Source of the DNA: Bdellovibrionales bacterium | GTDB taxonomy: Bacteria > Bdellovibrionota > Bdellovibrionia > Bdellovibrionales > UBA1609 | Direction of reading: 5' to 3' | Assembly (NCBI GenBank): GCA_026713205.1 | Contig: JAPOOY010000282.1 | Location: 1 to 11,479 of the forward strand | Length of the DNA stretch: 11,479 nucleotides | Shown here: in pieces, positions 8,833-11,479 of the stretch | Position numbering within the stretch: position 1 is the stretch's first letter | Layout of the letters: every line of letters begins with the position of its first letter | The notes under the pieces: model-generated | Databases searched by the model: none | Seen by the model: the letters and a program-made list of their open reading frames with translations, nothing else | Told to the model about the DNA's origin: nothing | Made by a program: the position numbers and the translations under genes

Positions 8833-9112
8833 AACAGAGTTTTTTAGGTATCAATGGCTGAAAGGAAGTTATACACCTGAAAAAACCTCTCTTTTTTTTT
8901 GGTCTCTTCCAAAAAGGGCGATTCCACGGGCTGTGGATCGAAACCGGTTGAGACGCTGGGGGCGGGAAAACTTAAAAACCCTGCAAATGACAGGACATTT
9001 CACTGTCCTATTTCTGCCAGCGGGCAAGGGATTTTATAAAACTCTTTGCAGACGGGAATTTGATGATGTCTTTTTTAATTTATTTGAAAAAATTCAGAAA
9101 ACCCACAGATAG
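8819..9112 (+). CDS. rnpA: Ribonuclease P protein component (RnpA), TTG start
   Basis: RnpA is the protein cofactor of RNase P and helps the RNA subunit bind pre-tRNA leader and cleave 5' ends. The 97-residue reading keeps the F-x8-G strand region near the N-terminus (FFRYQWLKG) and the diagnostic [13 protein letters not shown] block at about 38-50, where the RNR motif contacts RNA. The frame opens only three bases before a TTG at 8819 (stop TAA at 8813-8815), and no ATG or GTG lies before the conserved core, so TTG is the only sensible start. It overlaps rpmH by 14 bases and lacks a strong ribosome-binding site, so initiation probably depends on rpmH translation. The N-terminus is about ten residues shorter than typical 110-120-residue homologues. 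The identification rests on the motif and on position after rpmH. Confidence 0.93.
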
Positions 9113-9401
9113 GATTTTAAAGTTCATAGCTTTTTTTGTTATCAGCTTTTATAAGGTCATTGTAAAAGGGCTCTTTGGAGGAGGGGGAGGCTGTCGTTTT
9201 TATCCCACCTGTGGAGACTATGCCCTTCAGGCTTATGAAAAGTATTCTTTTTTTGAAGCCACCCGGAGAACTCTTCGCCGCCTTTTAAGCTGTCATCCTT
9301 TTAGTTTAGTGGGGCAACCTCTTTGGGAACAAAAGGAAAATTCCTTTGATAAAGGGGAGAAGAAAAAGGGAGAGATCGGGAGCGAGATTCCTTTGGTTTG
9401 A
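9063..9401 (+). CDS. yidD: Membrane protein insertion efficiency factor YidD
   Basis: YidD is a small membrane-associated protein that improves YidC/Sec-dependent insertion and is usually encoded between rnpA and yidC, as here. The 112-residue reading has a hydrophobic helix (about residues 18-32), CRFYPTCGDYALQAYEKYSFFEA with the conserved cysteine pair, and LLSCHPFSLVG matching the family RLLRCHPF motif. The segment before the first Cys is a run of five glycines (FGGGGGC), where homologues usually have G-P-R or similar. A charged Lys/Glu-rich tail of about 25 residues follows the conserved core and ends inside the left outer arm of the palindromic repeat. Starts at TTG 9060, ATG 9063 or ATG 9066 are possible. 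GGGA at 9054-9057 fits either ATG. The start region overlaps rnpA by about 50 bases. Confidence 0.93.
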   Translation: MMSFLIYLKKFRKPTDRILKFIAFFVISFYKVIVKGLFGGGGGCRFYPTCGDYALQAYEKYSFFEATRRTLRRLLSCHPFSLVGQPLWEQKENSFDKGEKKKGEIGSEIPLV

Positions 9402-9593
9402 ATTTTGAGGTTTTTAAAGATGGATAATTATATGACTCCCTTCCTGAGAGAACAGGGACCAAAAGTGAGTTCGGCTTTGACACAGGTGCGGCTGTAAGTC
9501 GCTCTGTGGCAAAACGCATGTTTGAACTTTTGGTCCCTGTTCTCTCAGGAAGGGCATCCTTTGATTGCAGCAGAAAACCTCAAAATTCAAACC
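9395..9593 (+). repeat. Nested palindromic repeat element, copy 1 (full extent)
   Basis: Outer arms are a perfect 20-bp inverted repeat: GGTTTGAATTTTGAGGTTTT (9395-9414) and its exact complement at 9574-9593. The yidD stop codon (9399-9401) lies inside the left arm. Within it is a second, perfect 29-bp inverted repeat (9438-9466 with 9526-9554) around a 59-nt loop (9467-9525). The two arm pairs are separated by non-complementary spacers of 23 nt on the left and 19 nt on the right. It occupies most of the yidD-yidC gap and would fold into a very stable hairpin in the transcript. A related copy follows yidC in opposite orientation. The organisation resembles small dispersed palindromic elements such as REP or Rickettsia palindromic elements, but I recognise no named family. 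Confidence 0.85.
9438..9554 (+). repeat. Inner 29-bp stem and conserved 59-nt loop of copy 1
   Basis: The inner arms pair at 29 of 29 positions. The loop has its own nested pairing: TTTG-A-CACAG (9476-9485) with CTGTG-G-CAAA (9504-9513), one A/G mismatch; then GCGGCT (9488-9493) with AGTCGC (9497-9502), closing a three-base GTA loop. The GCGGCT/AGTCGC stem needs a G-U wobble in this strand and would have an A/C mismatch in the complement, which favours this strand as the folded RNA. Between arms and mid-stem lie conserved unpaired segments GAGTTCGGC and ACGCATGTTTGA. Copy 2 matches this loop at 54 of 59 positions with no indel. Confidence 0.85.
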
Positions 9594-9637
9594 GGAGAGG
9601 GCAGATTTATGCGTTTAAAAAACTCAAACTGGAGAGG
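9587..9637 (+). repeat. Direct repeat of a ribosome-binding-site-like motif
   Basis: TCAAACCGGAGAGG (9587-9600) recurs as TCAAACTGGAGAGG (9624-9637), 13 of 14 identical with a 37-nt period; both are followed by a similar (G/T)ATTT stretch. A third, looser match (CAACCCTGGAGGG, 9656-9668) contains the true yidC ribosome-binding site. The first unit overlaps the right outer arm of the palindromic element, and a related AAACCGGAGGAG is seen (minus strand) near 11332-11343 beside copy 2. Confidence 0.6.
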
Positions 9638-11254: not shown

Positions 11255-11400
11255 AGCATGTCCTCATAAGGTTTTTTATGAGAATTTCATTACCAAAAAG
11301 AGCTTTAATCCCTATTTTAGTCTAACTATACTCCTCCGGTTTGAAAATTTCCGGTTCTTCATAAGAAAAAATACTTACACCCTTTATAACAGCCTGTAGG
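11255..11400. other. Intergenic stretch after yidC, no gene seen
   Basis: I see no convincing coding frame here on either strand. It holds a small hairpin (11263-11282) and the word CTCCGGTTTGA (11334-11344). That word is the complement of TCAAACCGGAG at the right outer arm of copy 1 (9587-9597) and lies at a comparable distance from the repeat core (roughly 120-126 nt in both copies). This suggests copy 2 extends leftward through much of this stretch, although the sequence between is not alignable by eye. Confidence 0.5.
11263..11282 (+). terminator. Weak hairpin downstream of yidC
   Basis: CTCATAA and TTATGAG form a perfect 7-bp stem with a six-base GGTTTT loop eight bases after the yidC stop. 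It is AT-rich and is followed by AATTTCATT rather than a clean T run, so it is at best a weak terminator or an mRNA-end structure. The larger palindrome of repeat copy 2 lies downstream and may do the same job. Confidence 0.3.
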
Positions 11401-11479
11401 GGTCAAAAATTCAGACATGCATTTTGCCACAGAGCGACTTTCAGCCGCTACTGTGTCAAAGCCGAACTCATTTTTGACC
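11401..11479 (-). repeat. Palindromic repeat element, copy 2 (inverted, truncated by window end)
   Basis: GGTCAAAAAT (11401-11410) and ATTTTTGACC (11470-11479) are perfectly complementary arms around a 59-nt loop (11411-11469). On the minus strand the loop matches copy 1 (9467-9525) at 54 of 59 positions with no gaps. The apical stem is slightly longer here (AGCGGCT with AGTCGCT, closing GAA) and the mid-stem CACAG/CTGTG is unchanged. The arms differ from copy 1 (GACCAAAAGT there, GGTCAAAAAT here) but remain self-complementary. The right arm reaches the last base of the window, so its full length cannot be seen. The orientation is opposite to copy 1, so the two cores flank yidC as inverted repeats. 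Confidence 0.85.

What the first reader, a model, noticed from the sequence alone, without database searches (positions are those of the whole stretch)
9395..9593. Unnamed palindromic element with nested perfect inverted repeats in the yidD-yidC gap
A 199-bp unit with 20/20 outer arms and 29/29 inner arms around a structured 59-nt loop is far beyond chance and is not a simple terminator: there is no T run and the loop is large and itself folded. A second copy with a 54/59 matching loop proves it is a dispersed family in this genome. Known analogues are REP/BIME and Rickettsia or Wolbachia palindromic elements, but none that I can recall has this core. It may be a mobile non-autonomous element or a structured RNA.
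Basis: partly seen in the sequence, partly recalled or inferred. Interest (0 to 1): 0.75.

Follow-up and report, generated by a model that had tools for sequence, protein, structure and literature searches.

The report
Nested self-complementary jumping DNA hairpins
This is a small mobile DNA element that folds into a long hairpin and is scattered through draft genomes of relatives of the predatory bacterium Bdellovibrio; its two arms differ from copy to copy yet stay mirror images of each other, which suggests that one arm is rewritten from the other when the element spreads.

Summary
The window copy has 20/20 outer and 29/29 inner arms. A 20-nt core motif has 148 matches in this 1.5-Mb draft genome, none for the reversed control. 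The structure is two nested palindrome families that occur apart in other genomes: an outer MITE-like palindrome (TATACCGATCnnGTTTGAA ends) and an inner 'cap' hairpin (GAGTTCGG-hairpin-GCATGTYTGA) on long arms. Empty sites in relatives, including yidD-yidC (3 and 6 nt against 275 nt here), show insertion. Inner arms are mostly distinct (74 of 89) yet nearly perfectly complementary. Among low-mismatch copies, arm states shared between copies are two-sided (40 against 5), private ones mostly one-sided (20 against 8). That favours arms made complementary around mobilisation, with drift afterwards. The cap is inverted in 6 of 66 classifiable copies. Copies are intergenic with mixed orientation to genes in this genome, so an RNA gene or terminator is unlikely here. 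No Rfam family reaches its cut-off; plasmid and phage searches found nothing. The mobilising enzyme is unknown. New variant of the small palindromic mobile element.

The parts
9388..9437 (+). left half of the outer palindrome: degenerate end, outer arm 9395-9414, left spacer; supplies the stop codon of yidD (TGA 9399-9401)
   Evidence: the outer limit 9388 is set by eye, because the consensus left end TATACCGATC is degenerate in this copy
9438..9466 (+). left inner arm (stem P1), 29/29 complementary to 9526-9554
9467..9525 (+). cap (59-nt core): 5' GAGTTCGG and 3' GCATGTTTGA around an internal hairpin P2
9476..9513 (+). internal hairpin P2 of the cap
9526..9554 (+). right inner arm (stem P1)
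9555..9599 (+). right half of the outer palindrome: right spacer, outer arm 9574-9593, right end (limit set by eye)
9621..9637 (+). likely solo remnant of another outer right end
   Evidence: read, by eye
11327..11479 (-). second composite copy, cut by the contig end; its cap is at 11411-11469 on the - strand
   Evidence: start 11327 by eye
9060..9401 (+). yidD (upstream neighbour)
   Evidence: NCBIfam TIGR00278
9677..11254 (+). yidC (downstream neighbour)
   Evidence: NCBIfam YidC models

Best explanation
A composite non-autonomous mobile element. An outer MITE-like palindrome carries in its centre an inner mobile hairpin: a conserved cap with an internal-loop motif, on long arms. SHOWN: both families are repeated and occur apart in other genomes; insertions are missing at orthologous sites; arms vary in sequence but stay complementary; the cap is inverted in some copies. 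INFERRED: copies spread through a single-stranded (ssDNA or RNA) hairpin of the core strand that an unknown enzyme recognises by its cap. Around mobilisation one arm is rewritten from the other by fold-back copying or template switching, so each copy starts with near-perfect arms; afterwards it drifts and mismatches accumulate. Between yidD and yidC the insertion is probably neutral or mildly polar and not adaptive.
For: Copies: 148 core matches, control 0; 219 outer ends, control 0. Dissociation: outer ends number 219 in G000, 319 in G002, 96 in G016 and 106 in G025, and 0-6 in the other 43 of 47 family genomes, where the reversed control gives 0-9. G025 has no cap match; G001, G004, G028 and G038 have 19-75 model matches (at most 75 places per genome were scored) and only 1-4 outer-end matches. 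Capless outer elements with the same junction occur at two G000 places (L367, L369). Empty sites: yidD-yidC gap 3 nt in G001 and 6 nt in G002 (by eye) against 275 nt here; 22 nt in G137 against 115 nt in G128; two G016 copies missing in G031 and one G002 copy missing in G001. Arms: 55 of 89 copies perfect over 29 or more pairs, 74 distinct arms. In 77 of 87 copies (10 mismatched ones left out beforehand) 28 of 32 arm pairs change on both sides; 587 two-sided cells in the whole structure against 155 in shuffles and 54-121 in slid registers. Spanning tree of 68 distinct arms (only copies with up to 4 mismatches): 170 two-sided, 30 one-sided; 15 of 21 single-step edges two-sided; 76 of 170 transversions. 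Same set: states private to one row 8 two-sided, 20 one-sided; states shared by two or more rows 40 and 5 (p 3e-7); with up to 12 mismatches 8/37 and 40/21 (p 1.3e-6). Cap inverted relative to its spacers in 6 of 66 classifiable copies, 20 of 86 unclassifiable. Core-strand bias: G.T 16, A.C 5 in 78 of 89 copies (p 0.027); in all 89, 43 and 26.
Against: No enzyme was identified. Y1 transposase is found in 9 of the 16 carriers but not in G001, G002, G004, G016, G017, G031 and G038. The IS630-type DDE domain is missing in the 12 carriers searched; G025, with the outer family alone, has one. Reverse transcriptase is weakly enriched (10 of 16 carriers, 9 of 31 others). Some mismatches are shared between copies (5 shared states), so perfecting is not absolute. 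The strand bias is lacking in G038, G002 and G043 (12/11, 2/3, 2/3). Target-site duplications were not resolved. The spanning tree is not a phylogeny. All copies come from draft assemblies without reads; 17 of 60 fetched stretches have a cap within 150 nt of a contig end.
Confidence: 0.6

Rival explanations
1. Ordinary replication template switching inside resident palindromes keeps arms identical and inverts the loop, independently of mobility.
For: Predicts two-sided changes and spacer inversion, both seen; described for yeast inverted repeats (PMC8604942, abstract read) and for RNA hairpins (PMC8794818, passages read).
Against: States private to one copy are mostly one-sided (20 against 8). 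Arm mismatches (83) exceed what private or rare cap changes predict (21-34) in 84 of 88 copies, so standing copies are not corrected efficiently; the caveat is that the cap may be more constrained than the arms.
Confidence: 0.25
2. A functional RNA (regulatory hairpin, terminator or processing site) kept by selection for base pairing.
For: G.T bias on one strand in G000 and G028. The P2 helix shows one-sided G.U states (38 cells) as often as two-sided changes (39 cells). In G028, G008 and G043 0 of 17 copies with both neighbours called lie between divergent genes (7 convergent, 10 codirectional, counted; G008 copies with short arms were left out).
Against: In G000 19 of 64 copies lie between divergent genes; arm changes rarely pass through G.U states; no Rfam match over gathering score.
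Confidence: 0.1
3. A REP-type element mobilised by a RAYT (Y1 HUH transposase), which acts on single-stranded hairpins.
For: High copy number, intergenic, hairpin, strand bias; Y1 genes in 9 of 16 carriers, G000 among them with one at a contig edge.
Against: No Y1_Tnp match in 7 of 16 carriers, six of them 83-94% complete and rich in caps; Y1 is common in non-carriers too (119 of 147 genomes in all).
Confidence: 0.1
4. The arms are host DNA copied in inverted orientation beside each inserted cap.
For: In 11 G028 copies identity between copies falls from 0.93 at the cap to 0.34-0.39 at 30-60 nt, while pairing within copies rises from 0.77 to 0.99-1.00.
Against: Distal G028 arms still resemble each other beyond shuffles (Smith-Waterman 17.9 against 14.8, sd 0.40), pointing to diverged common ancestry; G008 (4 arms) shows no excess, and for G043 the reverse-complement score is about as high as the direct one. 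G000 arms fall into subfamilies (by eye).
Confidence: 0.08

Closest known systems
REP/BIME elements with RAYT transposases
   Same: small, intergenic, high copy number, hairpin, possibly mobilised in single-stranded form
   Different: much longer variable arms and a conserved cap at the tip, not a GTAG/CGTC tag at one end (PMC3733652, start of abstract and passages seen); Y1 gene not found in 7 of 16 carriers
Bacterial MITEs such as Correia/NEMIS, ERIC/RU-1, YPAL/RU-2 (names recalled; RU sizes from the start of the abstract of PMC2759123 in a search listing)
   Same: short non-autonomous palindromic insertions with terminal inverted repeats
   Different: no partner transposase established; composite of two families; inner arm sequence differs between copies. 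Not compared by sequence here
Rickettsia and Wolbachia palindromic elements (recalled)
   Same: dispersed palindromes of about 100-200 bp
   Different: the Rickettsia ones are known for insertion inside coding frames (recalled); 94 of 100 copies here do not overlap an ORF of 100 aa or more
Template-switch homogenised inverted repeats (PMC8604942, PMC8794818)
   Same: two-sided arm changes and spacer inversion
   Different: here tied to a dispersed mobile family with a conserved cap; changes private to one copy are mostly one-sided

Membership tests
REP element of the RAYT system | RAYT/Y1 transposase gene in the genome | tested here: inconclusive
   Y1_Tnp in 9 of the 16 carriers (G000, G007, G008, G010, G015, G020, G028, G039, G043), not in G001, G002, G004, G016, G017, G031, G038; drafts, so absence is not final; whether any is a RAYT was not tested
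REP element of the RAYT system | GTAG or CGTC tag at one end of a short stem | not tested
   no systematic search
MITE of an IS630/Tc1-mariner type | terminal inverted repeats | tested here: met
   outer ends, 219 matches, control 0; solo palindromes of about 40-100 bp read
MITE of an IS630/Tc1-mariner type | related transposase gene (DDE_3) | tested here: not met
   PF13358: no match in the 12 carriers searched (G000, G001, G002, G004, G007, G008, G010, G015, G016, G017, G020, G028); 5 of 49 genomes positive, G025 with the outer family among them; G031, G038, G039, G043 not searched
MITE of an IS630/Tc1-mariner type | target-site duplication (TA) | tested here: inconclusive
   ends often read TATA, but TA may be part of the end; relatives are too diverged to align to the base
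Rickettsia palindromic element | in-frame insertion in genes | tested here: not met
   94 of 100 copies do not overlap an ORF of 100 aa or more (crude ORF calling)
Rfam RNA family | covariance-model match over gathering score | tested here: not met
   window; six loci with caps (9 matches up to E 1, all below their cut-offs; best MIR847, 51 bits against 184)
Template-switch homogenised inverted repeat | two-sided arm changes and spacer inversion | tested here: met
Template-switch homogenised inverted repeat | correction of standing copies in place | tested here: inconclusive
   private states 20 one-sided, 8 two-sided speak against efficient correction; no same-site strain pairs were available

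The most novel reading that the evidence does not exclude
A new class of bacterial mobile element: a capped palindrome whose GAGTTCGG/GCATGTYTGA internal loop is recognised on a folded single strand and which copies itself through self-primed (snap-back) synthesis. Only the cap is then inherited as sequence, while the arms are inherited as complementarity and drift freely; such units nest inside one another's loops.
Probability: 0.25. Interest if true: 0.9.

Novelty: new variant of a known kind. Interest (0 to 1): 0.7.

Why it matters
Paired changes in stems are usually read as proof of a selected RNA. Here is a dispersed family with dozens of natural replicates in which changes shared between copies are two-sided, changes private to a copy are mostly one-sided, and placement argues against an RNA gene. 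It is a natural test bed for how palindromes are copied, how they stay mirror-perfect and how they are tolerated. It warns against taking covariation alone as evidence for RNA function, and it may lead to an unknown enzyme that recognises a hairpin tip. It also breaks assemblies: 17 of 60 fetched stretches have a cap within 150 nt of a contig end.

Tried and rejected
Broad cap pattern in viral contigs: 48 hits, but none has more than 4 complementary bases in a row next to the motif, so they are chance or phage-gene matches; the narrower pattern had 0 hits. Host-flank-copy idea for the arms (note): weakened. In-place correction as sole cause: weakened. A regex search for solo outer elements was too strict (2 with cap, 0 without) and was replaced by reading chosen places. 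A regex core scan timed out and was replaced by BLAST. Of the four G016 copies on L095, two have a clean empty site in G031; at the third G031 has unrelated sequence without a cap, at the fourth it has a cap of its own nearby. Pairs of species with copies near the same gene gave no clear arm comparison. The rows near contig ends were malformed; flips were recounted. One palindromic locus (L160) was counted on both strands; one search counts it once. Paper searches showed no description of this family in their listings.

Full report
Setting. The window holds the usual chromosome-start genes: gyrB, dnaA, yidD and yidC are named by NCBIfam; gyrA, recF, dnaN, rpmH and rnpA are my reading (the rnpA frame had no NCBIfam match). 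It is contig C284 of a 302-contig, 1.5-Mb draft, 85% complete.

Check of the observation. Both arm pairs are as described, the fold of the whole unit is far outside shuffles, that of the core alone is not, and the second copy is at 11398-11476. There is no Rfam match over cut-off in the window.

Copy number. A 20-nt motif of the core gives 148 matches at up to two mismatches against none for the reversed control. The outer end motif gives 219 against none. Of 60 stretches fetched around copies, 17 have a cap within 150 nt of a contig end.

Two families. Outer ends are abundant in G000, G002, G016 and G025 and number 0-6 in the other 43 of 47 family genomes (reversed control 0-9). Caps are found in 16 of 47 family genomes by covariance model (strict filters, at most 75 places scored per genome) and in 17 of 368 genomes of the phylum by pattern (one hit of the reversed control). 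G025 has the outer family without caps; G001, G004, G028 and G038 have caps with 1-4 outer-end matches. Capless outer elements are seen in G025 and G000. In G000, G002 and G016 the two are found combined. Nesting goes further: another palindrome sits in the cap loop in G031, and a cap sits inside a cap in G132; both by eye.

Insertion. yidD and yidC are 3 nt apart in G001 and 6 nt apart in G002, against 275 nt here, and the element supplies the yidD stop codon (by eye; G003 had no yidC match). Further empty sites: G137 against G128 (22 and 115 nt), G031 against G016 twice and G001 against G002. Some of these intervals hold more than one inserted palindrome; the yidD-yidC interval also holds a likely outer-end remnant.

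Arms. In 89 G000 copies with long enough flanks, 55 are perfect over at least 29 pairs, with 74 distinct 28-nt arms; over 28 pairs there are 2320 Watson-Crick pairs, 43 G.T, 26 A.C and 103 others. On 77 copies (10 of 87 left out because mismatched) 98.7% of cells pair and 28 of 32 arm pairs change on both sides; sliding the register drops pairing to 35-56% (its shuffles do not keep relatedness). Along a spanning tree of 68 distinct arms with up to 4 mismatches there are 170 two-sided and 30 one-sided changes. On the same set, states private to one row are 8 two-sided and 20 one-sided, states shared by two or more rows 40 and 5; allowing up to 12 mismatches gives 8 and 37 against 40 and 21. Mismatches are no rarer than private cap changes predict (83 against 21-34; 4 of 88 copies with displaced arms dropped). 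Thus changes that have been passed on are mostly two-sided, and changes since the last spread mostly one-sided. Together with cap inversion (6 of 66 classifiable, 20 more unclassifiable, the window copy among these) this points to copying of one arm from the other at or near mobilisation. Template switching with these two signatures is published for other systems (PMC8604942 abstract; PMC8794818 passages).

Other genomes. Arms differ between genomes and reach 72 bp in G028 and G020. In G028 identity between copies falls away from the cap while pairing within copies rises (11 copies); weak similarity beyond shuffles remains in the distal arms, so they look like diverged relatives and not copies of host flanks. 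G.T exceeds A.C on the core strand in G028 (19 and 1), G004 (9 and 2), G008 (6 and 3), G031 (4 and 1) and G000 (14 and 3), is about even in G038 (12 and 11), G001 (8 and 6) and G016 (5 and 3), and is not in excess in G002 and G043 (2 and 3 each). This agrees with a folded single strand only in part of the genomes.

Placement. By crude ORF calling 94 of 100 G000 copies are intergenic; of 64 with both neighbours 19 lie between divergent, 31 between codirectional and 14 between convergent genes. In G028, G008 and G043, 0 of 17 lie between divergent genes (counted; only copies with arms of 15 bp or more). A general terminator role does not fit G000 but is not excluded in those three.

Machinery. 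Y1 is found in 9 of 16 carriers and in 119 of 147 genomes overall, DDE_3 in none of the 12 carriers searched but in G025, which has the outer family alone and is therefore a lead for that family, reverse transcriptase in 10 of 16 carriers and 9 of 31 others (p 0.034). None singles out a partner for the cap.

Verdict. A real, abundant, composite mobile palindrome; a new variant of a known kind, with an unusual mode of arm inheritance whose mechanism is inferred.

Noticed in passing
L078:1352-1491, L114:1018-1158, L070:909-1070: A different palindrome (CATTCCGGCG...GGCCGGAATC type in the first two) sits in the loop of the cap hairpin in G031: palindromes nested in hairpin tips.
   Followed up: partly
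L059:1501-1955; L050:1-400: Caps in near-tandem arrays (start-to-start about 184 nt in G004, about 127-143 nt in G001).
   Followed up: no
L236, L250, L262 around 1500: In G132 a cap unit seems to sit inside the hairpin of another cap unit.
   Followed up: partly
L371: A G000 element that has lost its cap and one inner arm by an apparent deletion.
   Followed up: no
L186:1-324: The only Y1-type transposase match of G000, at a contig edge.
   Followed up: no
L200: IS630-type DDE_3 transposase match in G025, the genome with many outer palindromes but no cap.
   Followed up: no
L151:1327-1385: Left and right inner arms of different subfamilies around one cap: recombinant copy or assembly chimera.
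   Followed up: no
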